Below are positions 1 through 19,865 of a stretch of 64,000 nucleotides of DNA, piece after piece (position 1 is the stretch's first letter; every line of letters begins with the position of its first letter). Location: NCBI RefSeq assembly GCF_944380985.1, contig NZ_CALWJJ010000002.1:1-64000 (forward strand), in the 5' to 3' direction. Origin of the DNA: an uncultured Agathobaculum sp. GTDB taxonomy: Bacteria > Bacillota > Clostridia > Oscillospirales > Butyricicoccaceae. The notes below the pieces were generated by a model, which ran no database searches, was not told the DNA's origin, and saw nothing but the letters and a program-made list of their open reading frames with translations. Position numbers and translations under genes: made by a program.

Positions 1-560
1 AATTTGCGGATGTATCCGTCTGCCGTTAGTTCGCTCACGACTTCGCTTCGTTCATAGGAATCGCCTTGCAGCAGGATATCCAACTGATACTCTGCCCAGG
101 GCAGCCGGTGGCAGGCTTCTACAAACCGCTCGTCCAACACATCTTCCGGCGCTTGTGGTGCATACCGTTTTTCCCAATCCAGGAGCAACCGCCGATACTG
201 GTTCAAAACAGAAAAGCACAGCTGCTCGTTCTCACGAAGTTGCTGTGCTTTGGTTTTGTGTTTCTTTTTCCGGCGAATGGCTTCCGGCAAGGGCTTGTCC
301 GGCGCAAGGTGAAAGTCCGACGCCAGTTTTCGGGCCGCATCATACAGCCGAAGGTCAAACAGTTTGGCGGTCAAATCGATCACATCCCCGTGTTCCCCGC
401 AGGCAAAACAGTGGTAGTGGTCATCCGATACATACAAGCTCGGGCGACGGTCATTATGGAACGGACACAGTGCCATGCCATAGTGGTTGACGTCAATTCC
501 ATACGCCTGCGCTGCTTCCTGTGTGTTGATACTGGCTTTCACCACTTCAAACAGATTCAT
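1..560 (-). CDS. CHC2 zinc-finger protein of a mobile element (partial, runs off left edge)
   Basis: The reverse strand is open from an ATG at 560 to the window edge, about 186 codons, with no stop in view. The N-terminal part carries a CHC2-type zinc finger, as in DNA primases: C-P-F-H-N-D-R-R-P-S, then H-Y-H-C-F-A-C-G-E-H-G-D-V-I-D (roughly residues 32-62). The rest is charged and helical without a visible TOPRIM or helicase domain. Such short primase-finger proteins are common cargo of clostridial conjugative elements, where they are thought to bind DNA; they are not complete primases. It is transcribed divergently from the DUF6076-like gene. A GGAGGG stretch lies about 9 bases before the ATG. 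The product may end just beyond the window. Confidence 0.85.
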   Translation of the reverse strand, partial: MNLFEVVKASINTQEAAQAYGIDVNHYGMALCPFHNDRRPSLYVSDDHYHCFACGEHGDVIDLTAKLFDLRLYDAARKLASDFHLAPDKPLPEAIRRKKKHKTKAQQLRENEQLCFSVLNQYRRLLLDWEKRYAPQAPEDVLDERFVEACHRLPWAEYQLDILLQGDSYERSEVVSELTADGYIRK

Positions 561-649
561 ACAGATTCCCTCCATTTCCTTTTTGATGGGGCAGTTTTCT
601 CACCCCTTTGTATAGGTTATGGGGAAAATCGAAAAAAACAGGCTAATGG

Positions 650-722
650 CATGACAAGCCGTTTTCAAAAAACATGACAAGGTCTTTGTTGTGTGCTATT
701 ATGAAAATAGAAAAACATGACA
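650..722. promoter_or_regulatory. Intergenic control region with three CATGACA repeats and a promoter
   Basis: The heptamer CATGACA occurs three times in the same orientation, at 650-656, 673-679 and 716-722. The middle copy contributes a plausible -35 (ATGACA, 674-679), followed by a 17-base spacer and TATTAT (697-702), a reasonable -10 for the rightward gene. The repeats may bind a regulator that controls both divergent genes; that is inference. Confidence 0.45.
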
Positions 723-733
723 GGAGGGAGAAG

Positions 734-1849
734 ATGGATCAAATCATCAACCATGCGGTTTTATCGCTGGATTTCTGGCAGGATACAGTAACCTATGAGG
801 GGTGTACGATGCCCGCAGGAACTATTGGCTGCGAGGTGCTGAACATCCCGGACAGCACCATTGGAAAGCTGGATACTCCTTGCAATGTGCTGAACCAGCT
901 GCTTCAGGGGATGAACACCGGTTCCGTGGATATGGAGCTGCTACCGCAGGTGCAGCAGGCCGCTGGCGAGATCATCTCTTTTTTACAGACCACATCACCC
1001 TTCTCCCGCCTGAATCGAAGCTATTTCGAGCAAAAACTTGCAACCATCTTTTCCGAAGAATACATGGAGGATGCCAAAGCTTATTTGCAGCTCACCCAAC
1101 AGGAGCAGCTGATCTGTGCCTTGACTGGTCAGCATGGCAAGGCGACCATGCTCGTGCGAATCGTGCAGGTGCTGGGGCATTTGAGTTATTCTCTGGGGCA
1201 GTACAAGGAAGCCTTGACGAAATTTGCAGAGCGGTTGAATGAACCAGACTATGACCGTACCCCGGACGGTTATGCGACAATGTTCGGGCAGTTCTTCCAA
1301 GGTGAGCCAACCCTGTCGCTGGATAACCCGGCCTGGATGACCCTAACCAATGCTTCGGTGCAGTATGTATCCGCCATTCGCCCCGGAAAGACAGAGCCGC
1401 AACTGGTCAAGCGGATGCACTATGTCTCCTTTGTGGGAATGTTCCGTTCCGATCTGTTTGAGGGACTTTGTGTGGGCCATGCACCCAAGAAATGCCCCAT
1501 CTGCGGCAGATGGTTTCTCACCATTGACGCACGGCACACCAAATACTGCGGCGGTCTGGCCCCCGGCGACCAACGGGGACGGACGTGCCGACAAATCGGC
1601 AATCTGAGAGGCCGGGAGCAGCGGGAGCTTGCAGACGATCATCCCATTAAGGCGATTTATACCCGCCGTATGAACACCATCCTACAAAATACCCGCCGGG
1701 GAAAGCTGGATGAAGGAACGGCAGCAGCTATGAAAAAGCTGGCAAAAGATAAGATGCTTCGTGCGCTTTCAGATCAGCGTTATGCCAGCACTGTCTATGA
1801 GCAGGAAATGACCCAAGATGCACTTTTGAAGGCCGTACAAAAGAAATAA
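734..1849 (+). CDS. DUF6076-like conserved protein with zinc-knuckle
   Basis: A 371-residue protein of the type carried by clostridial conjugative elements; I associate it with DUF6076. The ATG at 734 is chosen because GGAGGGAG ends four bases before it; a longer in-frame start at 674 has no ribosome site. The C-terminal half holds a zinc-binding pattern: C-P-I-C-G-R-W-F, then D-A-R-H-T-K-Y-C-G-G and a further C in R-G-R-T-C-R-Q-I. This resembles the abortive-infection-like/CGNR knuckle followed by a basic helix, suggesting nucleic acid binding. The N-terminal 200 residues are helical with no motif I recognise. The sigma-like gene follows 32 bases downstream, so the two are probably co-transcribed. 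The function is unknown. Confidence 0.7.
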   Translation: MDQIINHAVLSLDFWQDTVTYEGCTMPAGTIGCEVLNIPDSTIGKLDTPCNVLNQLLQGMNTGSVDMELLPQVQQAAGEIISFLQTTSPFSRLNRSYFEQKLATIFSEEYMEDAKAYLQLTQQEQLICALTGQHGKATMLVRIVQVLGHLSYSLGQYKEALTKFAERLNEPDYDRTPDGYATMFGQFFQGEPTLSLDNPAWMTLTNASVQYVSAIRPGKTEPQLVKRMHYVSFVGMFRSDLFEGLCVGHAPKKCPICGRWFLTIDARHTKYCGGLAPGDQRGRTCRQIGNLRGREQRELADDHPIKAIYTRRMNTILQNTRRGKLDEGTAAAMKKLAKDKMLRALSDQRYASTVYEQEMTQDALLKAVQKK

Positions 1850-1881
1850 GCAGAGAAACATCCGAAAGGTGGTGAGGGAAA

Positions 1882-3063
1882 ATGGATACAGCGTGGACAT
1901 GGGAGCTGTCCGGCTACTGTGCCAAATACAGCTTTCTGACGGAACCCAAGGGCTTGAACATGCGGGAAGTGGAACGCATCTTTCAGCTTGACCCCGAACC
2001 GCCTGTCCATGAAAATCTGAATGATTATATCATTAAGGCTGTGCAGAGCCGTAATTTGCGCTGGTTTTCCTTTTTCCTGCACCACTATGAAACCCGGCTT
2101 AATAGTCGTGTTCGCCGTTTCCTGTTGCGGGAGGGGCTGGATCGCTATGACCCGGAACGCTTTTTGGATTATAAAATGGGCTGTGTGCTTGCCATGCTGG
2201 ATTGTCTCCGGGAGTACAATCCAACACAAGGGGCGGATTTTCTGACCTATGCCCATCATTTTATTGGGAATGCTCTTTTGACCTGTCGGATGCAGGAGGA
2301 GGCCGGTTCCTTTGAAAATGTGGATGAGTACAAGGCTGTGCGAGGGATTGCATGGCTCTACAATCAATCCGGTCAGTCTGAACAGGCGGCAATCCAGAAA
2401 TATGCCCAGAAAAACGGTTGTACCGAGGAAACCGCAGCAAAGTTTTTGGCATTGGCCAAGCAAAATCGAAGCCGTGTTCCGTTTTATCAGACCATTCAGG
2501 ATGAGGACAGCGAAGAAACCGGCGAGGATGTCAGCCGGGATGACCACTGGGATTATACGGAGATTCTATGGGACGGCATCCAGGCTAAAGCTGTCCGGGA
2601 GGCATTTGAAAAGCTGAATTACCGGGAACAGACCCTCTTGGAAAAGAGAAACGCCATCTGTATGACCTGTGGACGGGTCAGTCCCACCAGCACCCGGTTG
2701 ACCTTTGAAGAACTGGCAGTCCTCTTTGAGGGCAGCACGGCCAGTGGTGCAGAACGAGCCTACCGCAAAGCCGTGGAGCATTTGGCCTGTTTGCTGACAG
2801 AAGCCGGAGTGCTTCACATGATTCGCCTGAAACGAAAATCCCAGACCAAACACAAAAAGAAAATCGCCGCCGCTGTCTACCTGTATCAGGTGGACAACGA
2901 CGGCGAATGGGGTGAGATTTCGTTTGATTTTGAGGCTGGAACAGCGGAGATTATCCGCTTGGCAGAGTGGGATACGACGGTAAGTAAGAAATTTGCAAGA
3001 AAAGTGATTCGATACTTTTTGAACAGTGATTCTGATAAATTATATAGAGAAACCTCTATATAG
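1882..3063 (+). CDS. Sigma-70-like factor of a mobile element
   Basis: A 393-residue protein that begins after a good AAGGTGGTGAGG site. Residues about 45-140 resemble sigma region 2: they include R-N-L-R-W-F-S-F-F-L-H-H-Y and a stretch ending T-Y-A-H-H-F-I-G-N. The segment around residues 235-310 (Y-R-E-Q-T-L-L-E-K-R, then T-F-E-E-L-A-V-L-F, then G-A-E-R-A-Y-R-K-A) looks like region 4 with its helix-turn-helix, interrupted by a C-x2-C-containing insert. Proteins like this accompany DUF6076 and CHC2 genes in clostridial elements and presumably direct transcription of element genes. The last codons and stop lie inside a 16-base tandem duplication, so the C-terminus may have been altered. Confidence 0.75.
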   Translation: MDTAWTWELSGYCAKYSFLTEPKGLNMREVERIFQLDPEPPVHENLNDYIIKAVQSRNLRWFSFFLHHYETRLNSRVRRFLLREGLDRYDPERFLDYKMGCVLAMLDCLREYNPTQGADFLTYAHHFIGNALLTCRMQEEAGSFENVDEYKAVRGIAWLYNQSGQSEQAAIQKYAQKNGCTEETAAKFLALAKQNRSRVPFYQTIQDEDSEETGEDVSRDDHWDYTEILWDGIQAKAVREAFEKLNYREQTLLEKRNAICMTCGRVSPTSTRLTFEELAVLFEGSTASGAERAYRKAVEHLACLLTEAGVLHMIRLKRKSQTKHKKKIAAAVYLYQVDNDGEWGEISFDFEAGTAEIIRLAEWDTTVSKKFARKVIRYFLNSDSDKLYRETSI

Positions 3064-3072
3064 AGAAACCTC
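3041..3072. repeat. Perfect 16-bp tandem duplication at the end of the sigma-like gene
   Basis: TATATAGAGAAACCTC occurs twice head to tail, at 3041-3056 and 3057-3072. The stop codon of the sigma-like gene (3061-3063) lies in the second copy. The duplication marks the edge between the element backbone and the AT-rich restriction module. It could be a slippage event or an insertion-site trace. Confidence 0.9.
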
Positions 3073-3090
3073 TTTGATATGTGAATAGAA

Positions 3091-3114
3091 GCCTGTGCCC
3101 TTGCACAGGCTCTT
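3091..3114 (+). terminator. Rho-independent terminator after the sigma-like gene
   Basis: GCCTGTGC (3091-3098) pairs with GCACAGGC (3103-3110) over a 4-base loop and is followed by TCTTTT. It ends the 734-3063 transcription unit. Confidence 0.85.
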
Positions 3115-3253
3115 TTCCATTATCGGGAGTTTGCTTTGTGGTTTGATAAAGTCTTTTCTGCTTTGCTTTTTGCAGGTTTGGTAGAATTTTTTTGGGGGAA
3201 AGTTTTCTACACCTTACCACTATCATACACAGCCATAATCGAAGGCTTTTCAA

Positions 3254-3302
3254 TTGACACTTTCTTTTAAGCATGATAGTATGTTAGTATGTAAACTTAC
3301 AT
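3254..3302 (+). promoter_or_regulatory. Promoter and probable controller operator of the type I R-M operon
   Basis: TTGACA (3254-3259), a 17-base spacer and TAGTAT (3277-3282) form a strong promoter. Immediately downstream, TAGTATGT is repeated in tandem (3277-3284, 3285-3292). It overlaps the perfect inverted repeat ATGTAA-AC-TTACAT (3289-3302). The palindrome sits at the expected transcript start, where a bound regulator would repress. The first gene of the operon encodes a small helix-turn-helix protein, the natural candidate for the ligand. Confidence 0.7.
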
Positions 3303-3328
3303 TCTAATTTGAGAATGGTGGTGATTCT

Positions 3329-3682
3329 TTGATTGTTGATGATTCTATGAAATTCTGCAATTTGCTTGCACAAATGATAAAAGAAGCAAATTTATCAAAT
3401 GTCAAGTTTTACACCGCACTTGGCATAAAGAAACCTTACTTTTACGATATTTTAAGCGGCAAAGTTAATCCGCCTCCTCCTGAAAGACAAATTGCAATGC
3501 TTCAGTTATTAAGGCCAAAGCCTGAACAAATAGCGTTGTTTTTTGACTTAGCTGCACAAGAGCGAAATGAAGTACCCGTTGATATTGCACAAAAGCTAAA
3601 AAATAAAGATTTGTGCAAACAATTGAGAAATGATATAGACTACGAAAAATTATTAAAGAACGGAGAAAACAAAGATGAGTGA
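3329..3682 (+). CDS. Small XRE-like helix-turn-helix protein, probable R-M controller
   Basis: A 117-residue protein starting with TTG at 3329; GGTGGTGA lies five bases upstream, supporting this over the internal ATG at 3347. Residues 10-60 resemble a Cro/C1-type helix-turn-helix: L-A-Q-M-I-K-E-A-N-L, then T-A-L-G-I-K-K-P-Y-F-Y-D-I-L-S-G-K. It overlaps hsdM by 8 bases, so the two are translationally coupled. Its position as first gene after a palindromic operator suggests a C-protein-like regulator timing methylase and nuclease expression. That role is established for many type II systems but only inferred here for a type I locus. Confidence 0.7.
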   Translation: MIVDDSMKFCNLLAQMIKEANLSNVKFYTALGIKKPYFYDILSGKVNPPPPERQIAMLQLLRPKPEQIALFFDLAAQERNEVPVDIAQKLKNKDLCKQLRNDIDYEKLLKNGENKDE

Positions 3683-5339
3683 TAATAAAAGAGAACAAGA
3701 GAGAGCAGAACTTCACAATACAATTTGGGCACTTGCTAATGAACTTAGAGGCAGTGTTGATGGTTGGGATTTCAAGCAATATGTTTTAGGCATGCTATTT
3801 TATAGATACATATCTGAAAACCTTACAACTTATCTCAACAAGGGTGAATGGGATGCAGGAAATACTGATTTTGATTATGCCAAAATCAGCGATGAAGAGG
3901 CTTTAAGTATTAGAGATGATATGGTACAAGAAAAAGGCTTCTTTATTTTACCCAGCGAATTGTTCGAGAATTTATTAAACAGAATCAAAAAAGCAGATAA
4001 AGATGCAAAGGATCAAGCAGAAAAAGATGGTAAAGAAGTAGAAGTTGCCGATTTGGATGAGAACTTAAATGAAATATTGCAAACAACCTTTAAAAATATT
4101 GAAGCCTCTGCTATTGGTAGTGCGAGCGAAGAAAACTTTAAAGGTTTGTTTGACGATATAGATGTAAATAGCAATAAGCTTGGGCCAACAGTTATTAAGA
4201 GAAACAAGAGGCTTAAAAAATTAATTACCGTTATCGGAGATATGAATCTTGGTAATTATCAAGATAATTCAATCGATGCTTTTGGGGACACCTATGAGTA
4301 TCTAATGGGAATGTATGCTTCTAATGCTGGCAAAAGCGGCGGCGAATTTTTCACCCCACAAGAGGTATCTGAGCTTCTGACAAAAATCTCACTTCTTGAT
4401 AATAACGGTAAAATGAAAACAGAAGTAAACAAAGTATACGACCCGGCTGTGGGAAGCGGCTCGTTACTTTTGAAGTTTGCAAAAATTCTCGGTAAAGACA
4501 ATGTTCGCAATGGATTTTTCGGTCAGGAAATCAACATTACAACTTATAATCTTTGTCGTATCAATATGTTCCTGCACGACATAGGTTACGATAAATTCAG
4601 CATTGAACACGGCGACACTTTGACTGATCCTAAACATTGGGATGAAGAACCGTTTGAAGCCATCGTTTCAAATCCACCCTACTCTATCAAATGGGAAGGG
4701 TCTGACAACGGAACACTGATAAACGATCCCCGGTTTTCTCCTGCCGGTGTATTGGCTCCTAAATCAAAAGCGGACTTTGCTTTTATTATGCATTGTCTGC
4801 ATTGGCTTGCTACAGATGGAACAGCGGCTATTGTTTGCTTTCCCGGTATTATGTATCGTGGTGGTGCAGAACAGAAAATCAGAAAATATCTGATCGATAA
4901 CAACTATATCGAATGTGTTATTCAGTTGCCTGATAATCTCTTTTACGGAACAAGTATTGCAACTTGCATTATGGTTCTTAAAAAATCAAAAGTTGACAAC
5001 CAAACTTTGTTTATTGATGCCTCAAAGGAATTTATCAAATCTACCAACAGCAATAAATTGGGGGATGGAACATCAAGCAACGAGCCTAATAATATTCAGA
5101 ATATATTAAACGCTTATATCAACCGAAAGACTGAAAAGCATTTTACTGCTCTTGTGAAAAAGGAAGATATTGAAAATGCAGATTACAATCTTTCGGTATC
5201 AACTTATGTAGAAAGCGAAGATACAAGAGAAGTTATCGACATAGCTGTCCTCAATGAGCAAATATCTCAAATCGTTCAGCGTGAAAATACATTGCGTGCC
5301 GAAATCGATGCGATTATAGCTGAAATTGAGGAGGCGTAA
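3675..5339 (+). CDS. hsdM: Type I restriction-modification DNA methyltransferase subunit HsdM
   Basis: A 554-residue adenine methyltransferase subunit. The N-terminal HsdM_N helical domain begins L-H-N-T-I-W-A-L-A-N-E-L-R-G and includes G-M-L-F-Y-R-Y-I-S-E. The AdoMet-binding motif I appears as D-P-A-V-G-S-G-S near residue 256, and the catalytic N-P-P-Y motif at residues 333-336. Length and motif order fit a full, active subunit. With HsdS it forms an M2S1 methylase, and with HsdR the R2M2S1 restriction complex. It is followed after 3 bases by a zinc-ribbon gene rather than directly by hsdS, which is unusual. Confidence 0.97.
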   Translation: MSDNKREQERAELHNTIWALANELRGSVDGWDFKQYVLGMLFYRYISENLTTYLNKGEWDAGNTDFDYAKISDEEALSIRDDMVQEKGFFILPSELFENLLNRIKKADKDAKDQAEKDGKEVEVADLDENLNEILQTTFKNIEASAIGSASEENFKGLFDDIDVNSNKLGPTVIKRNKRLKKLITVIGDMNLGNYQDNSIDAFGDTYEYLMGMYASNAGKSGGEFFTPQEVSELLTKISLLDNNGKMKTEVNKVYDPAVGSGSLLLKFAKILGKDNVRNGFFGQEINITTYNLCRINMFLHDIGYDKFSIEHGDTLTDPKHWDEEPFEAIVSNPPYSIKWEGSDNGTLINDPRFSPAGVLAPKSKADFAFIMHCLHWLATDGTAAIVCFPGIMYRGGAEQKIRKYLIDNNYIECVIQLPDNLFYGTSIATCIMVLKKSKVDNQTLFIDASKEFIKSTNSNKLGDGTSSNEPNNIQNILNAYINRKTEKHFTALVKKEDIENADYNLSVSTYVESEDTREVIDIAVLNEQISQIVQRENTLRAEIDAIIAEIEEA

Positions 5340-5342
5340 TAT

Positions 5343-6146
5343 ATGAGATTATCAGATGTGCTGTCCAAACCGATAACAACAGATTATGTACAAATAGAAG
5401 GCTTTTTAGGTAGCAGAAAGCTTAAAACCGGAAATTCTAAAAAAATTGCAGTCGGTAAGGTTGCATTAAATTATTATTGTAATAATTGCGGCGATCAGCG
5501 AACATTTTATTCTGGGGAAGACTTATTTTGTATTGGTGTAAACGAAAAAATTGTTAGCGTTGACTGTGTTCTTGAATGCCCTCGTTGCGGGGCTTCTGTG
5601 CAAATGTGGTTTTTGCTTGAGTGCAGAGAAGAAGATAATATACATAGTCAATATCCTTATGTACGTATTGCAAAAAGAAGTGAAAAATTTTCGGAAGCAG
5701 TTTCATTCAATACTGAAACTTATGGTGATTTCACAGATGCTTTGGAAAAAGCCAAAAAGGCAGCCAGAGAAGGATTTGGGGCAGGTTCTATTGTTTATTT
5801 GAGAAAGGTTTTTGAAAGAATTATTACCCAAACAGCAGAGGCTGCAAATCCTCCCATTGAAACAAGGAAACCAAACGGCAATCTTAAACCATTTATTCAG
5901 ATTCTTACACCAGTAAAAGATCAATGTAATATCATTCCTTCGGAATTTGCTGAAGATGGCTATAAACTCTTTGGTGAGCTTAGTGATGTAGTGCATGGAG
6001 ATTATGACGAAGATGAGGCATTACAAAAATTTGATGCTTTTTATCGGTTAGTTACAGGTGTGCTGGAAAAAATAAAAACTAACAGAGAACTAATGGATGC
6101 GATAGGTACCTTAGGCTGGCATACCGGAGGTGAAGAAAATGAGTAA
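5343..6146 (+). CDS. Zinc-ribbon protein with DUF4145-like C-terminal domain, inserted in the hsd operon
   Basis: A 267-residue protein encoded between hsdM and hsdS in the same operon, 3 bases after hsdM and overlapping hsdS by a few codons. The N-terminal part has two C-x2-C pairs (Y-C-N-N-C-G, later L-E-C-P-R-C-G), a typical zinc ribbon. The C-terminal half resembles DUF4145: G-A-G-S-I-V-Y-L-R-K-V-F-E-R-I-I, then an L-F-G-E-L-S-D-V-V-H-G-D helix resembling HEPN-like folds. DUF4145 proteins are often found next to type I systems. Whether it regulates restriction, acts as a separate RNA-directed effector or is only a passenger cannot be told from sequence. Confidence 0.7.
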   Translation: MRLSDVLSKPITTDYVQIEGFLGSRKLKTGNSKKIAVGKVALNYYCNNCGDQRTFYSGEDLFCIGVNEKIVSVDCVLECPRCGASVQMWFLLECREEDNIHSQYPYVRIAKRSEKFSEAVSFNTETYGDFTDALEKAKKAAREGFGAGSIVYLRKVFERIITQTAEAANPPIETRKPNGNLKPFIQILTPVKDQCNIIPSEFAEDGYKLFGELSDVVHGDYDEDEALQKFDAFYRLVTGVLEKIKTNRELMDAIGTLGWHTGGEENE

Positions 6147-7341
6147 ATTAGAACAACTTATAAATGAACTTTGCCCAGAGGGTGTAGAATATCGAAGACT
6201 TGAAAATTGCTGTGAAATATTGGATAACAAAAGAAAACCCGTAACAAAATCCGCAAGAGAAGCTGGCAAATATCCGTATTACGGAGCAAATGGTATTCAA
6301 GATTATGTATCTAATTATATATTTGATGGTACTTTTGTTCTTGTCGGCGAGGATGGTAGCGTTGTAACCGAAATAGGAACCCCTATTGTTACTTGGGCTA
6401 CAGGAAAAATATGGGTGAACAATCATGCTCATATTATTTCAGAGATAAATGGTGTTTTGCTGCGTTACTTATTTCATTATCTACAAACTGTACCTGTAAA
6501 ACACTTGATTCATGGCAATATTCCAAAATTAACAGGCGGTGATTTTAGAGCATTAAAAATCGCTGTTCCACCTCTGCCAGTACAAGAAGAAATTGTGCGT
6601 ATATTGGATAAATTTACGGAACTCACTGCGGAACTCACTGCGGAACTCACTGCGGAACTCACTGCAAGAAAACAGCAGTATGAGTACTATAGAGATGATT
6701 TGTTGAGTAAAAACACCAATAAAAAGTCATTAAAACAAATAGCACTATCAAGTCGCTCTGGCGGTACTCCTTTAAAAAGTAATAAAGATTACTATGAGAA
6801 TGGGACTATTCCGTGGCTTAGAACGCAAGAAGTTGTTTTTAATGAAATTAATAAGACAGATTGTTTTATCACAGAATTAGCCGTGCAAGAAACATCAGCA
6901 AAGTGGATACCTGTAAATTGCGTAATTGTTGCGATTTCGGGTGCATCAGCGGGACGATGTGCTATAAATAAAATACCATTAACCACAAATCAGCACTGTT
7001 TGTCAATAGAAATTAATCCAGAAGTTGCTTTGTATAAATATGTGTTTTATTGTGTTTGTAATCAATATGACGATTTGATTGCAAAAAAAGAGGGTGCACG
7101 GGGAGACCTTAATTCTTCAAGAATTTTAGGCTTAGAAATTCCAATTCCATATCCAGAAGATAAGGAAAAATCACTTGCAGAGCAACAACGCATAGTTGAT
7201 ATTCTTGATCGATTTAATAAGCTTTGCAACGATATAAGCGAGGGATTACCTGCCGAAATTGAAGCAAGACAAAAACAATACGAATATTACCGAGATAAAC
7301 TCTTAACCTTCAAAAAGAGGGAGGCGACGGAAAATGAATAG
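6139..7341 (+). CDS. hsdS: Type I restriction-modification specificity subunit HsdS
   Basis: A 400-residue specificity subunit with the usual two target-recognition domains (roughly residues 1-155 and 195-350), each followed by a helical conserved region. The ATG at 6139 is preferred: GGAGG lies eight bases upstream, whereas an in-frame GTG at 6130 overlaps that site. The central spacer contains four in-frame copies of E-L-T-A (residues 161-176), followed by A-R-K-Q-Q-Y-E-Y-Y-R-D. A matching A-R-Q-K-Q-Y-E-Y-Y-R-D closes the protein, giving the pseudo-symmetric layout of the family. The repeat stands where copy number sets the spacer of the DNA target in EcoR124-type enzymes. It overlaps hsdR by 8 bases. 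Confidence 0.95.
   Translation: MSKLEQLINELCPEGVEYRRLENCCEILDNKRKPVTKSAREAGKYPYYGANGIQDYVSNYIFDGTFVLVGEDGSVVTEIGTPIVTWATGKIWVNNHAHIISEINGVLLRYLFHYLQTVPVKHLIHGNIPKLTGGDFRALKIAVPPLPVQEEIVRILDKFTELTAELTAELTAELTARKQQYEYYRDDLLSKNTNKKSLKQIALSSRSGGTPLKSNKDYYENGTIPWLRTQEVVFNEINKTDCFITELAVQETSAKWIPVNCVIVAISGASAGRCAINKIPLTTNQHCLSIEINPEVALYKYVFYCVCNQYDDLIAKKEGARGDLNSSRILGLEIPIPYPEDKEKSLAEQQRIVDILDRFNKLCNDISEGLPAEIEARQKQYEYYRDKLLTFKKREATENE
6619..6666 (+). repeat. Four 12-bp in-frame repeats encoding ELTA in hsdS
   Basis: GAACTCACTGCG occurs at 6619, 6631 and 6643, and with a final A instead of G at 6655. It encodes E-L-T-A four times. Near-identical DNA copies are prone to slippage or recombination, changing the helix between the two DNA-binding domains by four residues per unit without breaking the frame. 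Confidence 0.97.
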
Positions 7342-10300
7342 CTTTGAAATTGTGGCAAGTTCTAATGAAAGTACGGTGGTGGCAGAGTATACACCCGAAA
7401 AAAGAAAAAGCACTGACTATCAAAGCGAAGCAGAGCTTGAACAGGATTTTATCAAGCGTCTTGTCAGCCAGGGCTATGAATACATTTCTATAAAAAGCGA
7501 ACAGGACTTAATTGACAATCTCCGTGCTCAGCTTGAAAGACTGAATAACTACACCTTTTTTGATAAAGAGTGGAACGACTTTTACAACAGCGTTATTTCA
7601 AATGGAAATGATGGCATTGTAGAGAAAACCCGCAAAATACAGGAAGATTATTTGCAAAACCTCACCCTTGATAACGGCTATGTAAAAAACATCAAGCTGA
7701 TAGATAAAACCAACATTCATAACAATCATTTGCAGGTAATAAACCAGTATGAAGAAGACGGCGGAAAGCATGATACTCGTTATGATGTGACAATTTTGGT
7801 AAATGGATTGCCGTTGGTGCATATTGAACTTAAAAAACGAGGGAACGCAATTCGAGAAGCGTTTAACCAAATCAATCGATACCAGCGTGACAGCTTTTGG
7901 GCAGGCAGCGGATTGTATCAGTATGTACAGCTGTTTGTAATCTCCAATGGTACGCATACAAAGTATTATTCTAACACAACAAGATTTCAGCATATCAAAG
8001 ATAATGCAGAGAAAAACGCAGCAAAAAAGAAAAAGACTTCTAATAGCTTTGAATTTACAAGTTATTGGGCGGATGAGAAAAACCGCACCATCCCGGACCT
8101 TGTAGACTTTACAAAAACTTTTTTTGCAAAACATACGCTGCTTAATATTTTGACTCGTTACTGTGTATTTACTTCAGAGGATTTGTTATTGGTAATGCGT
8201 CCTTATCAAATTGCGGCAACTGAAAAAATTTTAAACCGCATTATCGTTTCTACCAATCTCAAAAAAACCGGCAGAAAAGAGGCGGGCGGTTACATTTGGC
8301 ATACCACCGGAAGCGGTAAGACTTTAACCAGTTTTAAAACTGCACAGCTTGCTCAAGGATTGAATTTCATTGATAAAGTATTGTTTGTTGTGGATAGAAA
8401 AGATCTTGACTATCAGACAATGAAAGAATACGACAGATTTGAAAAAGGTGCTGCCAACAGCAACACCTCTACTAAAATTCTGCAAAAACAAATGGAAGAT
8501 GATAATGCAAGAATCATCATTACAACCATTCAAAAGTTAGATAAATTCATATCCAAGAACAAAGAACATGAAGTTTATAAAAAACACATTGTTATGATTT
8601 TCGATGAATGCCACCGTTCTCAGTTCGGAGATATGCACAAGTCGATTACAAAGCACTTTAAGAATTATCATATTTTCGGGTTTACGGGCACCCCTATTTT
8701 CGCCATAAACTCGAATAGTTCCAATGCTCCGAATATGCGTACCACAGCACAAGTTTTCGGAGGTGAGCCGGACGAAAACGGAAACAAAGTAAGACCACTG
8801 CACGCATACACCATTGTAGATGCTATTCACGATGGAAATGTCCTGCCTTTTAGAATCGATTATATCAACACGATCAAAAACCCTGAACTTTTATACGACA
8901 AGCAAGTAAAGGCAATTGACCGTGAAAAAGCTTTGCTTGATCCTAAAAGAGTATCTGAGATTACACAATACATTCTTGAACATTTTGAGCAGAAAACCTA
9001 TCGTAATCAAAGTCGCTCCTATTATGACCATAAAGTGATTACGAATGTAGAAAAAATGGCGAAGTCCAAGAATAATACGGTATCAGAGCAAAAAACAACT
9101 GCAAAAGTAAATGGTTTTAATTCGATTTTTGCAGTCGCATCTATTCCGGCAGCAATTGCATACTACAATGAATTTAAAAAGCAAATGGAGGAAACAGGTC
9201 ACAAATTAAATATTGCTACGATATTCAGTTTTAATCCAAACGAAGAAGATCCGGATGATATCTTGCAAGATGAGAATTTTGACACAAGCGGTCTTGATCA
9301 GACTTCACGGGATTTTCTTGACAGTGCGATTGATGATTATAATAAGCTGTTTAATGTTAGCTATGATACATCCGCCGATAAATTTCCCAACTATTATAAA
9401 GATGTATCATTGAGAATGAAAAATCGTGAGATTGATTTGCTGATCGTAGTCAATATGTTTCTAACGGGATTTGACGCTACTACTCTCAATACCTTATGGG
9501 TAGATAAGAATTTAAAGGATCATGGTTTGATACAAGCGTTTTCCCGTACCAATCGTATTTTAAACTCAGTTAAAACATTTGGAAACATTGTTTGTTTTAG
9601 GAACCTTGAAACAGCCACTAATAATGCCTTAGCACTTTTTGGGGATAAAAACGCAAGAGGTATGGTTATTCTAAAAACTTACAATGAGTATATGAATGGC
9701 TATGAAGATGAACACGGAAAACATATTGAAGGTTATAACGAGCTTGTAGCCAGACTGGTAAACGAATTTCCGATAAGCAGTCAAATCATCGGCGAGGATA
9801 ACGAAAAAGAATTTATCAAACTGTTTGGTCGCATTTTGAAATTGAGAAATATTTTAAGGTGTTTTGATGATTTTGAAAGCGGCAGTTCTGTATCCGTTAG
9901 AGATTTACAGGATTATCAAAGCATTTATATTGACTTATATCAAGATTATGCTAAAAAAAGCGACATTGAAAAAGAACGAATCAATGATGATATTGTTTTT
10001 GAAATCGAACTTATCAAGCAGGTTGAGGTCAATATAGATTATATTTTGATGCTTGTTGCCAAATATCACGAATCAAATTGTGAGGATAAAACGATTCTTG
10101 CTAATATTAATAAATCAATAGATGCAAGTGTTGAGTTGCGCAGCAAAAAAGCTTTAATTGAGGGGTTTGTTGCCCAAATGACAGTAAAAACAGATGTTGA
10201 AAAGGACTGGAAAGACTTTGTTAAAAAGCAAAAAGAGCAGGACTTAGAAACAATCATCAAAGATGAAAAACTAAAACACGCTGAAGCTCAAAAATTTATA

Positions 10301-10465
10301 GAAAACTCATTCAGAGATGGTGGGATAAAAACCACAGGAACAGATCTTGATAAAATATTGCCGCCAATTTCAAGGTTTTCAGGTGGTTCAAATAGAGCTT
10401 TGAAAAAACAGACTGTCATTAATAAGCTAAAAGACTTTTTTGAAAAATATTTCGGCTTAGTATAA
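7334..10465 (+). CDS. hsdR: Type I restriction endonuclease subunit HsdR
   Basis: A 1,043-residue motor and nuclease subunit. The N-terminal PD-(D/E)xK nuclease is visible as D151 followed by I-E165-L-K167. Helicase motif I (T-T-G-S-G-K-T) is at residues 324-330, and a DECH box at 424-427 is followed by F-T-G-T-P. Later motifs include L-L-I-V-V-N-M-F-L-T-G-F-D and Q-A-F-S-R-T-N-R. Its C-terminal helical region ends L-K-D-F-F-E-K-Y-F. Length and motifs indicate an intact enzyme that translocates DNA with ATP and cuts unmethylated invaders. The start overlaps hsdS, coupling nuclease translation to the specificity subunit. Confidence 0.97.
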   Translation: MNSFEIVASSNESTVVAEYTPEKRKSTDYQSEAELEQDFIKRLVSQGYEYISIKSEQDLIDNLRAQLERLNNYTFFDKEWNDFYNSVISNGNDGIVEKTRKIQEDYLQNLTLDNGYVKNIKLIDKTNIHNNHLQVINQYEEDGGKHDTRYDVTILVNGLPLVHIELKKRGNAIREAFNQINRYQRDSFWAGSGLYQYVQLFVISNGTHTKYYSNTTRFQHIKDNAEKNAAKKKKTSNSFEFTSYWADEKNRTIPDLVDFTKTFFAKHTLLNILTRYCVFTSEDLLLVMRPYQIAATEKILNRIIVSTNLKKTGRKEAGGYIWHTTGSGKTLTSFKTAQLAQGLNFIDKVLFVVDRKDLDYQTMKEYDRFEKGAANSNTSTKILQKQMEDDNARIIITTIQKLDKFISKNKEHEVYKKHIVMIFDECHRSQFGDMHKSITKHFKNYHIFGFTGTPIFAINSNSSNAPNMRTTAQVFGGEPDENGNKVRPLHAYTIVDAIHDGNVLPFRIDYINTIKNPELLYDKQVKAIDREKALLDPKRVSEITQYILEHFEQKTYRNQSRSYYDHKVITNVEKMAKSKNNTVSEQKTTAKVNGFNSIFAVASIPAAIAYYNEFKKQMEETGHKLNIATIFSFNPNEEDPDDILQDENFDTSGLDQTSRDFLDSAIDDYNKLFNVSYDTSADKFPNYYKDVSLRMKNREIDLLIVVNMFLTGFDATTLNTLWVDKNLKDHGLIQAFSRTNRILNSVKTFGNIVCFRNLETATNNALALFGDKNARGMVILKTYNEYMNGYEDEHGKHIEGYNELVARLVNEFPISSQIIGEDNEKEFIKLFGRILKLRNILRCFDDFESGSSVSVRDLQDYQSIYIDLYQDYAKKSDIEKERINDDIVFEIELIKQVEVNIDYILMLVAKYHESNCEDKTILANINKSIDASVELRSKKALIEGFVAQMTVKTDVEKDWKDFVKKQKEQDLETIIKDEKLKHAEAQKFIENSFRDGGIKTTGTDLDKILPPISRFSGGSNRALKKQTVINKLKDFFEKYFGLV

Positions 10466-10531
10466 CATATTTTATTCTACATGATGGCAAGCAACCAACC
10501 ACATCCATAAAAATCTACGAATTCTCTATGT

Positions 10532-10582
10532 AAAAAAGCCGCCAGAAGCAGTATCTCTTGGATTCGACTCTGGCGGCTTTGC
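10532..10582. terminator. Bidirectional terminator between hsdR and the DUF6061-like gene
   Basis: GCCGCCAGA (10538-10546) pairs with TCTGGCGGC (10569-10577) around a 22-base loop. A-rich sequence on the left and T-rich on the right let it serve the converging genes on both strands. Confidence 0.75.
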
Positions 10583-10585
10583 TTA

Positions 10586-10837
10586 TCAATCGAGATCTAA
10601 CTGCGGAGTCTGCGTTACGGTTCGCAGGTATTCTTCTGGATCGCCATTCAAAATCAAATCTGCATAAGACAGTGGATCGTTATAGATGAGCCAGTCCAGT
10701 TCAGACCGCTGGAAACGACTATTCGCCACCTCATCCTCAACGGCGGTACAGTTGATGGAAATCATGCTGCCGTCAGAATATCTTAGTTCAACGCAACCGG
10801 TATCCATGTTAAATTCACAGGAAAGTAATGTTTTCAT
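10586..10837 (-). CDS. DUF6061-like small protein
   Basis: An 83-residue acidic protein starting M-K-T-L-L-S-C-E-F. The ATG at 10837 has GGAGGA seven bases upstream; a longer frame to 10870 has no ribosome site. It contains a single compact unit (V-E-L-R-Y-S-D-G-S-M-I-S-I-N-C, then S-E-L-D-W-L-I-Y-N-D-P-L-S-Y). I associate this with the DUF6061 family found in clostridial mobile elements; the function is unknown. It converges on hsdR and is more GC-rich than the flanking genes, consistent with belonging to the element backbone rather than to the restriction insert. Confidence 0.65.
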   Translation of the reverse strand: MKTLLSCEFNMDTGCVELRYSDGSMISINCTAVEDEVANSRFQRSELDWLIYNDPLSYADLILNGDPEEYLRTVTQTPQLDLD

Positions 10838-10873
10838 AATGCTATCCTCCAATATAAACTCTGTCAACAAGAA

Positions 10874-10914
10874 AAACTCCCGCCCAATTCCTGTTAGGAA
10901 TCAGACGGGAGTTT
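10874..10914 (-). terminator. Orphan leftward terminator upstream of the DUF6061-like gene
   Basis: AAACTCCCG pairs with CGGGAGTTT (10874-10882 with 10906-10914), with an inner ATTCCT-GTT-AGGAAT. On the minus strand it is followed by TTTTTCTTG. No leftward gene now precedes it, suggesting that its gene was lost at the junction near 10,920-10,975. Confidence 0.6.
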
Positions 10915-10939
10915 CGTATGCACCCGAAAACCGTCAGCT

Positions 10940-10975
10940 AACAGTTGATAAGTGATTTAGTTCCTTATCACTGTT
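10940..10975. repeat. Inverted repeat at the break point of the truncated ATPase gene
   Basis: AACAGTTGATAAG (10940-10952) and CTTATCACTGTT (10964-10975) form a near-perfect hairpin with one bulged base. The right arm ends at the stop codon (10975-10977), directly before the surviving part of the ATPase coding sequence, so it may be the end of a small mobile element or a recombination scar. Confidence 0.6.
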
Positions 10976-10977
10976 AA

Positions 10978-12720
10978 GCCAAAGGAAGATTTTCTTTTAT
11001 GGCTTTTGCAACTAGTGCAAAGTGGACTACTATATATAATTGCGGTGAAGAATTAAAAACGTATGATATTATTTTGGAAAATGATAAAAAGGAAGTTATT
11101 AATTGTACAGAGCCTACAATAACAACGAAAGAAAAAACAGGTACTAAAGTAGAGTTCAATAATATTTACGGCTTGACATCAGAAAATATGGATTTTGATG
11201 TTTTAGAGCCTGTGTTGTTGAAAGAGTTTGCATGGTTTTTATATTTATTCAAAAACCGAAATGTAAATATTTATGTAAATGAAATGCTCATTGATTATAG
11301 CAAATACATTAATACTGAATTAAGTGAGAAGGTATTAAAAACAATTGATAACATTAGTTTTGAAATAAGTTTAGTAGTATGGCAGGAATCTATTAAAGAA
11401 AAATTCTGTTGTTATTATTTTGACAGTAATGATACAGTGAAGGGGAAAGAAACGACCACATTTAATAGAAATACCATAGAATTTAATCATAGCGTTTTTG
11501 TAAAATCTGTTTTTTTTGATGAAAAAAATGATGTAGAAAATCAATTAGAAACTACGCAAATAAGTTTGTTTGACTCCGAAGATGATAAGAAAACATTCAG
11601 AAAACTAAAAAAATATATATCTTCTTTTATCGAAAAGAAAATTGGAATATATATGTCTCAACGGGCTGAAGAAGCAGTAAAAGAAATGATGGAGGAAAGA
11701 AATACTTTTCCAAAATTTTCAGATGACGCTTACGGAAGAATGAGAAAGCGGGATTTAGTTAATGTAACAAAAGAAATGTATAGAATAGAACCTAAAATAT
11801 TTTATAGGCTGAAACCTATTCAAGAAAAATCCCTTCTTGGATTTTTGAATTTACTTTTGAATTCCGAGGAAAGAGAAAATGTGTTGTCGATAATTGAACA
11901 AATTGTTGAGTTATCACCGGAACAAAGACGAAATTTTTCAGATATGTTGAAAAAGACTAAGTTAGAAAATATTATAGAAGCCATAAAATTTATAGAAAGT
12001 AGATATAAAGTTATAGAGTTACTCAAAACTATTGTATACGATTTGACACAATTTGCCAACGAAAGGGATCATATCCAGAAAATAGTGGAACATCATTTCT
12101 GGCTCTTTGGTGAACAGTATAATCTTGCAAGCGCAGATCAGCGGATGAAAAAGGCATTAGAACGATATATCAATATTTTATATGGGGAAAATGATATTGA
12201 TGCGATTTTAAAAGAAGATGTTGAACAAGAACGTAGAATGGATATTTTTATGTGTAATTCAAGAGAGGCTGAGTATTCATTTGAAACAACGTTAGAAGAA
12301 AATATTATTGTAGAATTAAAAGCTCCAAAGATTACATTATCAAAGAAAGTTTTAAGACAAATTGAAGATTATATGGATTTTATAAGAAAACAACCCAGTT
12401 TCAACAGTGAGTACAGAAAATGGAAATTTATTGCTGTATGTAAACAGGTTGATGAAGATATCAAAAGCCGTTATGAAGCTTTTGCGGAAAAAGGGAAAAT
12501 AGGGTTAGTGATGCAAGTAGAAAATTATGAAGTATATGCATATACATGGGATGATGTATTTAAAAGTTTTGAATTAAGACATGCACCTATGTTGAAACGT
12601 TTGAAATATGATAGAGAACAATTAGCAAAGGAACTAATGGAGGAGGTTAAATCAGATGAAGGACGTGATAGGGTAGATGCTTTGACTAATATTGCTGTGT
12701 CGGCTACGGCAAATGTGTAA
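10978..12720 (+). pseudogene. 5'-truncated GHKL-type ATPase with C-terminal Shedu-like nuclease domain
   Basis: The frame opens at a stop at 10975-10977 and reads A-K-G-R-F-S-F-M-A-F-A-T-S-A-K-W. That looks like the glycine-rich loop of a GHKL (Hsp90/MutL-like) ATPase, so roughly the first 90-100 residues, with the N box and D-x-G-x-G, appear missing. The first ATG is at 10999 (573 codons) and has no convincing ribosome site, although GGAAGA lies at 10984-10989. The rest of the ATPase is followed by a helical linker (residues about 180-400). A PD-(D/E)xK domain follows, with M-D415-I-F, V-E439-L-K441-A-P and Q453, resembling the Shedu/DUF4263 anti-phage nuclease. It is probably a relic, but the nuclease part is intact and could be expressed. 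Confidence 0.65.
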
Positions 12721-17265: not shown

Positions 17266-18364
17266 ATGCAACATAGCAACACATGAACATCTGACAGTAA
17301 AGATTGATTACATCAGCATTGTATTTGACAGTGCAACAGCGGAAGAAGTGATAAGGCACATCTTAAATATGCCGGAAGATATCTTTATCACTTATCCGGC
17401 AAAGGTGGCTTTTAAGACTTATCAGACACGCTGGCAGTTAGGGGATATCTATATATCGGGCAACGCAAAGCCTACAGAGGACAATCCAGAGGGACTTGGC
17501 TGTTACCTCGTTATGACAGGGAGAGGGTGTGATGATATTTTTAATATCCTCGACAGTCATAACCGTACATTCGGGCATATGTTTCATCAATGCGTTCGCT
17601 GGTTCGGTACAGAGTTCCATTTTACAAGGCTGGATATCGCCATTGACGACAGGAATGAAGTACCGTTCTTCACGCCAGCACAGATACGGAAGAAATTTGA
17701 AAAAGAGGAATTTGTCTCCACCAGCGATTTCTACCACTTTGACGACAGCAAGTATGATACGGACGACTTGGCAAGGACGGCTTATCTCGGTTCTGGGAAA
17801 TCCGCTATATCTTACCGCTTCTACGATAAGGACAGAGAGGTGAGCGCAAAGTACAATAAATCCCTTGACGAAATCGGGAGCTGGAAACGTACAGAGATAC
17901 AGCTCCGTGATGAAAAGGCACACGCCTTTGCCATGCTCTTTGAGGAAAGACCTATGGAGCTGGGAGAGCTTGCGTTCGGTCTGCTGGCGGAAAATCTGCG
18001 CTTTGTCGTTCCCAACAAGAGCGAGAGCAACAAGAGCCGTTGGAAAACGTGCCGTTTCTGGAAACGCTTCTTAGGGAACGTAGAGCCTTTGAAGCTCCAT
18101 ATCCCCAAAACACAGAACTCGCTTTTGGAAACCCAGCAATGGCTGACGGACGGGGGCGTTATCTCGGCGGTCAAAGGTTTCTATTTTCTCGAAGAGCATG
18201 ATGCTTTAGGTGAGCTGAAATCAGTCGGGGAAATGCTGGACAAGGCAAGGTACAGTCCTCCATTCTCCAGCAAGCTGACGGGGCATTTACAGAGGATAGG
18301 CAGGGAAGAACTGATACCCCATATCCAGTACGATACCAAAAGCGGAAAAGGGGGTGCTGTATGA
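17266..18364 (+). pseudogene. MobT/Rep_trans relaxase, frameshifted at codon 7
   Basis: A Rep_trans-domain (MobT, Tn916 Orf20-like) initiation protein. The natural start is the ATG at 17266 after AAAGGAG, but the frame reads M-Q-H-S-N-T and then meets TGA (17284-17286). Skipping the single T at 17284 joins it to E-H-L-T-V-K-I-D-Y-I-S-I-V-F, which continues without a stop to 18364. The downstream frame has a GTG at 17348 (338 codons). Family residues remain: F-T-R-L-D-I-A-I-D-D and S-Y-R-F-Y-D-K-D. The shift would abolish normal translation, unless it is an assembly error or an internal start is used. The stop overlaps the start of xis by 4 bases. Confidence 0.75.
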
Positions 18365-18564
18365 GTAATACGGATATTCCTGTATGGGAGAAATACACCC
18401 TGACCATTGAAGAAGCGTCAAAATATTTCCGTATCGGGGAGAAAAAACTCCGCAAGCTGGCAGAAGAAAATCAAGGAGCCTGCTGGCTTATGATGAACGG
18501 CAACCGTATCCAGATCAAGCGAAGGCAGTTTGAGAAAATCATTGATGAACTGGACGCTATCTGA
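18361..18564 (+). CDS. xis: Excisionase of the Tn916 type
   Basis: A 67-residue basic winged-helix protein starting 4 bases inside the relaxase stop. [22 protein letters not shown] is the DNA-binding segment of Tn916-like excisionases. It directs the integrase toward excision. The integrase gene follows 108 bases downstream. Confidence 0.92.
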
Positions 18565-18671
18565 CGCTGTATTATAGCGTTTTATGGATTTGGATATGGT
18601 AGAGAAGTGCCGGATATGTTATACTTCAAAATGTCATATCGGGACTCTTTCAAAAGTGGAAAGGAGCGAAG

Positions 18672-19865
18672 ATGAGCGAGAAAAGACGTGATAATAAAGG
18701 TCGTGTCTTGCGAAATGGAGAGAGTCAACGTAAAGACGGACGTTTCATGTATAAATACACAGATAATGCAGGAAACATAAAATATGTGTACAGTTGGAAA
18801 CTGGTTAAGACAGATACCGTTCCCAAAGGGGCGAAAGATGATTTGTCGCTGAGGGAAAAGGAAAAGCTGATACACAGAGATTTGGAAGATGATATCGTTC
18901 CCTGCGGCGGTGAAATGACAGTGCTGGATTTGGTGAAGAAATATGTGTCGCAGAAAACAGGAGTGAAACATAATACAGAAGCCAATTATAACTTTGTCAT
19001 TAATATTATTAAGAAAGAGGACTTTGGAAAAAAGCGGATTGATAAGGTAAAATTATCTGACGCAAAAGGCTGGCTGATTAAATTGCAGAGTGACGGCAGA
19101 GGTTACAGCACCATACATTCTGTGCGTGGCGTTGTAAGACCAGCGTTCCAGATGGCGGTTGATGATGATTTGATAAGGAAAAATCCCTTTGAGTTCCAGC
19201 TTGCCACGGTAGTTGTCAATGACAGTGTGACAAGAGAAGCCCTTACCAGAAAGCAGGAACGGGCATTTCTGAAATTCGTAAAAGAGGATAAACACTTTTC
19301 CAGATACTATGAAGGTATCTATATCCTTTTTAAGACAGGACTTCGGATTTCTGAATTTGTAGGGCTGACGATTGCGGATATTGACTTAAAAAACGGCGTT
19401 ATCGACGTCAATCATCAGTTACAGAGAAAACGGAATATGGAGTATGTCATAGAGGAGACGAAAACCGAGTGCGGTACAAGGCTTGTACCCATGACAGACG
19501 AGGTGAAAAAGTGTTTCCGCAAAATCATTGAGAACCGCAAAAAGCCAAAGACAGAACCCATGATAGACGGGAAAGTGGGCTTTCTGTATCTGGACAAAAA
19601 TGATATGCCAATGGTTGCCCTGCACTGGGAAAAGTATTTCCAGCATATCTGTGAGAAATATAATAAAATTTACAAAGCCGAAATGCCAAAGGTGACACCT
19701 CATGTCTGCCGTCATACATTTTGCTCAAATATGGCAAAGTCGGGCATGAACCCTAAGACGTTGCAGAAGATTATGGGGCACTCGGATATTGGCGTGACGC
19801 TGAACACTTATACGCATGTAGGCTTTGAAGACATTCAAAAAGAGATGAAAAAGATATGTAGTTAG
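18672..19865 (+). CDS. int: Tyrosine recombinase (integrase) of a Tn916/Tn1549-type element
   Basis: A 397-residue integrase, the usual length for this family. The N-terminal 70 residues form an arm-binding domain (R-R-D-N-K-G-R-V-L). The SAM-like core-binding domain is at about 95-180. The catalytic domain shows the arginine in K-T-G-L-R-I-S-E, H-V-C-R-H-T-F and G-H-S, and the nucleophile in L-N-T-Y-T-H near the C-terminus, so all required residues are present. The integrase is the last gene before a strong terminator and the GC-rich chromosome, so the element end lies within the next 160 bases. Confidence 0.97.
   Translation: MSEKRRDNKGRVLRNGESQRKDGRFMYKYTDNAGNIKYVYSWKLVKTDTVPKGAKDDLSLREKEKLIHRDLEDDIVPCGGEMTVLDLVKKYVSQKTGVKHNTEANYNFVINIIKKEDFGKKRIDKVKLSDAKGWLIKLQSDGRGYSTIHSVRGVVRPAFQMAVDDDLIRKNPFEFQLATVVVNDSVTREALTRKQERAFLKFVKEDKHFSRYYEGIYILFKTGLRISEFVGLTIADIDLKNGVIDVNHQLQRKRNMEYVIEETKTECGTRLVPMTDEVKKCFRKIIENRKKPKTEPMIDGKVGFLYLDKNDMPMVALHWEKYFQHICEKYNKIYKAEMPKVTPHVCRHTFCSNMAKSGMNPKTLQKIMGHSDIGVTLNTYTHVGFEDIQKEMKKICS

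What the first reader, a model, noticed from the sequence alone, without database searches (positions are those of the whole stretch)
10940..12720. Relic of a GHKL ATPase fused to a Shedu-like nuclease beside a restriction operon
The frame resumes directly at the glycine-rich loop of a GHKL ATPase (K-G-R-F-S-F-M-A-F) after an inverted repeat and a stop, so the nucleotide-binding N-terminus is lost. The C-terminal PD-(D/E)xK domain with D415, E439-L-K441 and Q453 looks intact. A combined Hsp90-like ATPase and Shedu-type nuclease would be an anti-phage protein; the full-length version may be poorly described.
Basis: partly seen in the sequence, partly recalled or inferred. Interest (0 to 1): 0.75.

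Follow-up and report, generated by a model that had tools for sequence, protein, structure and literature searches.

The report
Shedu-type nuclease gene split by IME
The apparent remnant is the back two-thirds of a known type of anti-phage gene (a GHKL ATPase joined to a Shedu nuclease); its missing front is still in the genome, cut off by a mobile element that inserted into the gene and brought the neighbouring restriction system with it.

Summary
The ORF at 10999-12720 is the C-terminal 573 residues of a ~674-residue GHKL-ATPase/Shedu-nuclease protein of the paraMORC3/VcSduA kind. This kind was predicted in 2008 and shown to be anti-phage in 2025. The N-terminus is not lost. Its 95 codons lie on another contig of the same genome (C12:833-1119), against the end of a mobile element with a large serine recombinase. 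The other end of that element is at window 10980. The ends are inverted repeats (GGCTTAAYAGTGATAAGG); with a 2-bp overlap (AA) the two host flanks join into one open frame with every GHKL motif. The type I restriction operon (3675-10465) and DUF6061 gene are therefore cargo of this integrative mobilizable element (IME), not ancestral neighbours. Seven related elements also show a 2-bp overlap (AA or TT). Both gene pieces still look like selected protein (dN/dS ~0.06-0.07), so the insertion is probably recent. Foldseek puts E. coli SduA first for the C-terminal domain and Hsp90/MutL for the N-terminal part. I rate it a new member of a known kind. Side result: five of eight elements sit in terminator hairpins.

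The parts
10981..12720 (+). 3' two-thirds of the interrupted GHKL-Shedu (paraMORC3/VcSduA-type) gene, from the second half of the GKG(R)FS box to the stop. An in-frame ATG at 10999 gives the 573-aa ORF.
   Evidence: 84% DNA identity to L002 begins at 10988. All complete homologues extend upstream.
12241..12363 (+). PD-(D/E)xK core of the nuclease domain: D415, E439-L-K441, Q454
   Evidence: Invariant in 20 homologues; residue numbers checked; top PDB fold hit E. coli SduA 8ps5.
10963..10980 (.). Terminal inverted repeat of the inserted mobile element (its right end); insertion point 10980/10981, AA overlap at 10981-10982
   Evidence: Same end with different host DNA after it in about 20 genomes. 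Mirror end at C12:815-832 of the same genome.
1..10980 (.). Right-hand part of the IME (the left-hand part is on contig C12:1-832; about 4.9 kb between them is not in the assembly)
   Evidence: Window 1-2998 is 93% and C12:1-832 is 95% identical to the complete 19.4-kb element G053:C17:93055-112439.
3..575 (-). IME backbone: CHC2 zinc-finger primase-type protein (runs off the contig end)
   Evidence: PF01807, E 1.8e-15
674..1849 (+). IME backbone: DUF6076 protein
   Evidence: PF19553, E 2.3e-57; same gene in the G053 element
1882..3063 (+). IME backbone: 393-aa protein of unknown function, with a counterpart in the G053 and G266 elements
   Evidence: no Pfam hit
3675..5339 (+). Cargo: HsdM, type I methyltransferase subunit
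   Evidence: N6_Mtase E 1e-111, HsdM_N
5343..6146 (+). Cargo: 267-aa protein of unknown function between hsdM and hsdS
   Evidence: no Pfam, NCBIfam or PADLOC family above cut-off
6139..7341 (+). Cargo: HsdS, type I specificity subunit
   Evidence: Methylase_S, PADLOC Specificity_I
7334..10465 (+). Cargo: HsdR, type I restriction subunit
   Evidence: HSDR_N, EcoR124_C; TIGR00348
10586..10837 (-). IME gene next to the right end: DUF6061 protein
   Evidence: PF19537, E 1.3e-42; same gene next to the same end in many elements
10873..10915 (-). Strong terminator-like hairpin inside the element, between its end and the DUF6061 gene
   Evidence: the repeat finder I1

Best explanation
This is a chromosomal anti-phage gene of the GHKL-ATPase/Shedu-nuclease type (paraMORC3; VcSduA-like, Shedu type I-D) that has been split in two, probably recently. 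An integrative mobilizable element with a DUF4368 large serine recombinase inserted just after the codon for G95, within the codon for K96 of the GKG(R)FS ATP-binding box, using an AA core dinucleotide. Shown by sequence: both halves, both inverted ends, the 2-bp overlap, the restored frame, and the element's relatives. Inferred: the intact protein would work as a dimer whose N-terminal ATPase and clamp-like middle domain gate the C-terminal nuclease to cut phage DNA. The split gene is probably inactive, because the 3' half has no ATP-binding site and no promoter-like site was found upstream. The element replaces that defence with the type I restriction system it carries. Precise excision would restore the gene.
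For: Intact homologues: 86, 79, 73, 71, 68, 51 and 38% identity, all with the full GHKL N-terminus. N-terminal half in the same genome at C12:833-1119, 87% identical, ending at an element end. Ends CTTATCACTGTTAAGCC|AA and AA|GGCTTAATAGTGATAAGG; joining with a 2-bp overlap gives a 688-codon frame, while overlaps of 0 or 1 do not restore it. Element genes: large serine recombinase with DUF4368, Mob_Pre relaxase, primase. Seven other elements of the family show an AA or TT overlap at the ends. The element ends on C12 and C2 match one complete 19.4-kb relative. dN/dS is 0.072 (C-part) and 0.055 (N-part) against L002, with no stop or frameshift. Fold search: N-terminal part to Hsp90/TRAP1, MutL, Topo II; C-terminal part to E. 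coli SduA, E 3.3e-4, prob 0.99. Profile comparison to Shedu sequences E 4.9e-6, prob 86%. No promoter-like site on the + strand upstream of 10999.
Against: C12 and C2 are separate contigs of an incomplete genome, and about 4.9 kb of the element is missing from the assembly, so physical linkage is inferred. No relative with the same flanks and an empty site was found. The window's own C-terminal domain does not reach Pfam SduA_C (PF14082); only 2 of 20 homologues do, and the one whose score was seen lies below the curated cut-off. Anti-phage function is by homology only.
Confidence: 0.92

Rival explanations
1. A true relic: the 5' end was deleted and the 3' part is decaying.
For: Within the window alone the frame begins in the middle of an ATP-binding box, with unrelated DNA upstream.
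Against: The missing 95 codons are in the genome, cut at the matching base. There are no stops or frameshifts, and dN/dS is as low as between intact homologues.
Confidence: 0.04
2. A functional shortened nuclease: translation restarts at ATG 10999 and the ATPase-free protein works as a stand-alone Shedu-like nuclease.
For: The ORF opens with ATG shortly after an AGGA-like stretch (10983-10986) and is fully open. Other Shedu proteins use different N-terminal domains (stated in PMC12137116).
Against: No homologue starts at that position: complete relatives all extend upstream, and most do not even have a methionine there. No promoter-like site on the + strand. The ATPase mutation E27A abolishes VcSduA activity (PMC12137116).
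Confidence: 0.04
3. The restriction operon and the GHKL-Shedu gene form one composite defence locus, as in paraMORC-containing restriction operons.
For: In one relative (L004) an intact GHKL-Shedu gene starts 15 nt after the hsdS of an hsdR-hsdM-hsdS operon. Iyer et al. 2008 describe such linkage for paraMORCs (PMC2292703).
Against: Here the element end lies between the two. No type I operon was seen directly next to the homologues in L002, L003, L005-L007 (ORF lists read by eye). The G053 element carries a different type I system in the same cargo region.
Confidence: 0.03

Closest known systems
VcSduA, Vibrio cholerae Shedu with GHKL ATPase (type I-D Shedu), PMC12137116
   Same: N-terminal GHKL ATPase, middle clamp-like region, C-terminal PD-(D/E)xK Shedu nuclease in one protein; a glutamate at position 27 is conserved here too
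   Different: Different phylum and presumably divergent sequence (VcSduA's sequence was not at hand to compare directly). The copy here is interrupted by an IME.
paraMORC3 family (Iyer, Abhiman and Aravind 2008, PMC2292703)
   Same: GHKL plus S5-like module fused to a restriction-endonuclease-fold domain; patchy, mobile distribution
   Different: That work was sequence-only prediction; the split state described here is not in the passages read
Canonical Shedu, E. coli SduA (PDB 8ps5) and SduA_C/DUF4263
   Same: C-terminal nuclease fold and W-h-F-G-x-x-Y / D / E-h-K / Q motif order
   Different: Canonical Shedu has no GHKL ATPase. SduA_C does not match the window protein by HMM.
Multi-targeting large serine recombinases with DUF4368 (TndX-like clade; Durrant et al. 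2022, PMC10083194)
   Same: DUF4368 recombinase, TT/AA core dinucleotide, T- and A-rich arms, many different target sites
   Different: Five of eight sites here are palindromic terminator hairpins. 'Terminator' does not occur in that paper's main text.
IME_Rho_tet family (PMC12904643)
   Same: Gut Bacillota IME with a relaxase, a serine recombinase and about 21-bp terminal inverted repeats
   Different: Different gene set: 10.7 kb with mobC and tet(W) as described there, against Mob_Pre, DUF6076, DUF6061 and restriction cargo here. I did not compare the sequences directly.

Membership tests
paraMORC3 / VcSduA-type (Shedu I-D) | N-terminal GHKL ATPase with conserved motifs | tested here: met
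   In homologues and in the C12 half: E27, N31, DNGDGI, GKGRFS; HATPase_c_3 E 6e-17 in L002. Not encoded in the window ORF itself.
paraMORC3 / VcSduA-type (Shedu I-D) | Middle S5-like/clamp domain after the ATPase | tested here: met
   Model of the full-length relative aligns over about 400 columns with Hsp90 (TRAP1) N-M domains and also with MutL, E about 1e-10. Mean pLDDT only 63.
paraMORC3 / VcSduA-type (Shedu I-D) | C-terminal PD-(D/E)xK nuclease domain | tested here: met
   D/E-x-K/Q invariant in 20 sequences; weak HSDR_N_2 and PDDEXK_3 hits
paraMORC3 / VcSduA-type (Shedu I-D) | One intact polypeptide | tested here: not met
   The gene is split by the IME in this genome. Relatives are intact.
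paraMORC3 / VcSduA-type (Shedu I-D) | Anti-phage activity that needs both ATPase and nuclease | not testable with these tools
   Shown for VcSduA (E27A, K557A) in PMC12137116 only
Shedu nuclease superfamily (SduA_C / DUF4263) | Match to PF14082 above its cut-off | tested here: not met
   No hit for the window protein; 2 of 20 homologues hit at best E 8e-4; the one scored (G186) lies below the cut-off
Shedu nuclease superfamily (SduA_C / DUF4263) | Shedu fold of the nuclease domain | tested here: met
   Only PDB hit with E at or below 0.001 is E. coli SduA 8ps5, prob 0.99, although TM-scores are low at 0.23-0.27. hhalign to Shedu sequences E 4.9e-6, prob 86%.
IME with multi-targeting DUF4368 large serine recombinase | Large serine recombinase with DUF4368 next to one end | tested here: met
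   Full set of domains in the G053 element; Zn_ribbon_recom and DUF4368 in the C12 fragment
IME with multi-targeting DUF4368 large serine recombinase | Relaxase but no full conjugation machinery | tested here: inconclusive
   Mob_Pre in the G053 element. The corresponding 4.9 kb is not in this genome's assembly.
IME with multi-targeting DUF4368 large serine recombinase | 2-bp core shared by both insertion flanks, many different targets | tested here: met
   AA or TT overlap in all 8 elements examined, different host sequence each time

The most novel reading that the evidence does not exclude
The insertion is reversible: the recombinase with a directionality factor excises the IME precisely, so the population switches between 'Shedu on' and 'Shedu off, restriction system on'. 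An IME would then act as a genetic switch between two defence systems.
Probability: 0.08. Interest if true: 0.6.

Novelty: new member of a known kind. Interest (0 to 1): 0.34.

Why it matters
It corrects a tempting reading, a truncated fusion protein in a defence island. One mobile element carrying a restriction system knocked out a resident anti-phage gene at its ATP-binding box. It shows that 'relic' genes in fragmented gut genomes should be checked for a missing half on another contig. It also points to an IME family that seems to settle mainly in terminator hairpins, which would be a gentle way to insert without harming genes.

Tried and rejected
Pfam, NCBIfam and PADLOC on the ORF gave only weak nuclease hits. 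A sequence search of PDB found no Shedu. A viral-contig scan found no relatives. I considered that the conserved 66-bp stretch before the junction was a structured RNA or an IS200/IS605 end. Rfam found nothing, and the shared sequence stops at about the same base with unrelated DNA after it; the C12 half then showed it to be an element end. Profile comparison with a poor three-sequence Shedu alignment was not informative; a better one was. A search for the flanks as one empty site in 87 family genomes found none. The missing 4.9 kb of the element was not found in the assembly.

Full report
What is there. The frame at 10999-12720 encodes 573 residues and is open from just after a stop at 10975-10977. 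Pfam sees only weak nuclease signals at its C-terminus and PADLOC sees none.

Relatives. One scan of genome contigs gave eleven related loci. Ten encode full-length proteins in which the window ORF corresponds to everything after residue 101 of a 675-residue protein, and all ten have the GHKL N-terminus. The closest, L002 (a Lachnospiraceae genome bin), is 86% identical over all 573 residues. The eleventh (L012) is broken into short frames. The N-terminal motifs E27, N31, D59-x-G-x-G and G-K-G-R-F-S and the nuclease residues D516, E540, K542 and Q555 (L002 numbers) are invariant or nearly so in up to 20 sequences. HATPase_c_3 matches the N-terminus of L002 at E 6e-17.

The junction. DNA identity to L002 starts at window 10988. 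The 66 bp just upstream (10915-10980) recur in about 20 genomes of the same order, and in each the DNA that follows is different, with the shared sequence ending at about the same base. That is the signature of an element end.

The missing half. A search of the window's own genome with the N-terminus of L002 found it on contig C12:833-1119, minus strand, 87% identical. It abuts C12:832, the end of a sequence that codes for the C-terminus of a large serine recombinase (Zn_ribbon_recom and DUF4368). The element ends on C12 and in the window are inverted copies, GGCTTAATAGTGATAAGG and GGCTTAACAGTGATAAGG. Joining the two host flanks with a shared AA gives one 688-codon open frame containing IWNGLEAHA, DNGDGI and NKGKGRFSFMAF; overlaps of 0 or 1 do not restore it. 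The gene is therefore split, not truncated.

The element. Its right part is window 1-10980 and its left part is C12:1-832; about 4.9 kb between them is absent from the assembly. A complete relative, G053:C17:93055-112439, is 93-95% identical to both backbone parts. It encodes a large serine recombinase, a Mob_Pre relaxase, a D5-type primase, a DUF6076 protein, a DUF6061-like protein at the same end, and a different type I restriction system. This is the layout of an integrative mobilizable element. The type I operon of the window (hsdM, an unknown 267-aa gene, hsdS, hsdR) lies in the same cargo region. In one relative, L004, an intact GHKL-Shedu gene does sit 15 nt after an hsdS gene, so linkage with restriction operons does occur elsewhere, as Iyer et al. 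described for paraMORCs (PMC2292703).

Target sites. In the window and seven other elements both host flanks share the same dinucleotide, AA or TT, at the insertion point. DUF4368, a TT core and A/T-rich arms are the described marks of multi-targeting large serine recombinases (PMC10083194). Five of the eight sites are near-perfect palindromes with A- and T-runs, i.e. terminator hairpins (z -6.6 to -8.5); the window site is a weaker hairpin (z -4.4) inside coding sequence with T-runs at the same distance from the core. The sample is small and I state this as an observation only.

State of the gene. dN/dS against L002 is 0.072 for the C-terminal part and 0.055 for the N-terminal part, with no stops or frameshifts. 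Private changes in the window copy (10) fall in the range of the intact copies (6-29). The insertion is probably recent. No + strand promoter-like site was found upstream of 10999.

Fold. A model of the full-length L002 protein (mean pLDDT 63) matches Hsp90/TRAP1, MutL and topoisomerase II ATPase regions. A model of the C-terminal 330 residues (pLDDT 72) has E. coli SduA bound to DNA (8ps5) as its only PDB match at E <= 0.001; the TM-scores are low, so the family link rests on E-value, probability, motif order and profile comparison together. Pfam SduA_C itself is not matched by the window protein.

How it most likely works. By homology with VcSduA, in which ATPase (E27A) and nuclease (K557A) mutants both lose phage protection (PMC12137116), the intact protein would be an ATP-gated nuclease that restricts phage DNA. 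In this genome the gene is disrupted at the ATP-binding box, so its product is probably inactive; this last step is inference. Precise excision would restore it.

Limits. The two halves are on different contigs of an incomplete genome; linkage is inferred from the exact fit. No empty site with the same flanks was found in relatives. Nothing here tests function.

Noticed in passing
window 10963-10980; G053:C17, G321:C40/C15, G147:C12/C18, G134:C8/C12, G266:C24 (loci L035-L039, L089-L095): Five of eight insertions of this IME family sit in the loop of palindromic terminator hairpins with an AA or TT core (z -6.6 to -8.5), suggesting that the recombinase homes to terminators.
   Followed up: partly
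L090/L044 (G393) and L089/L042 (G300): Two other elements of the family interrupt coding sequence: a 728-codon frame with a DUF5054 region in G393, and in G300 a P-loop-like sequence (GEAKSGKSTFIN) beside a CRISPR-like repeat array.
   Followed up: partly
window 5343-6146: A 267-aa protein between hsdM and hsdS, apparently in the type I operon, with no family match above cut-off.
   Followed up: no
L004:1653-9722: An intact GHKL-Shedu gene begins 15 nt after hsdS of an hsdR-hsdM-hsdS operon, a possible true composite defence operon.
   Followed up: partly
L012:7725-8500 (Tyzzerella UBA1042): A copy of the same gene broken into short frames, apparently decaying.
   Followed up: no
Pasteurella phages OR544131.1:13830-15161 and OR544134.1:8039-9370: Phage records encode relatives (about 23% identity, query residues 82-543) annotated hypothetical protein; possibly prophage-borne defence genes.
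   Followed up: no
window 17348-19865: A 338-aa protein that looks replication-initiator-like, a small excisionase-like protein and a tyrosine integrase-like protein in a row, suggesting a second, Tn916-like element to the right of the split gene (from reading the sequence only).
   Followed up: no
window 10586-10915: The DUF6061 gene of this element family is preceded by a strong leader hairpin/terminator that is conserved in many elements, possibly attenuation.
   Followed up: no
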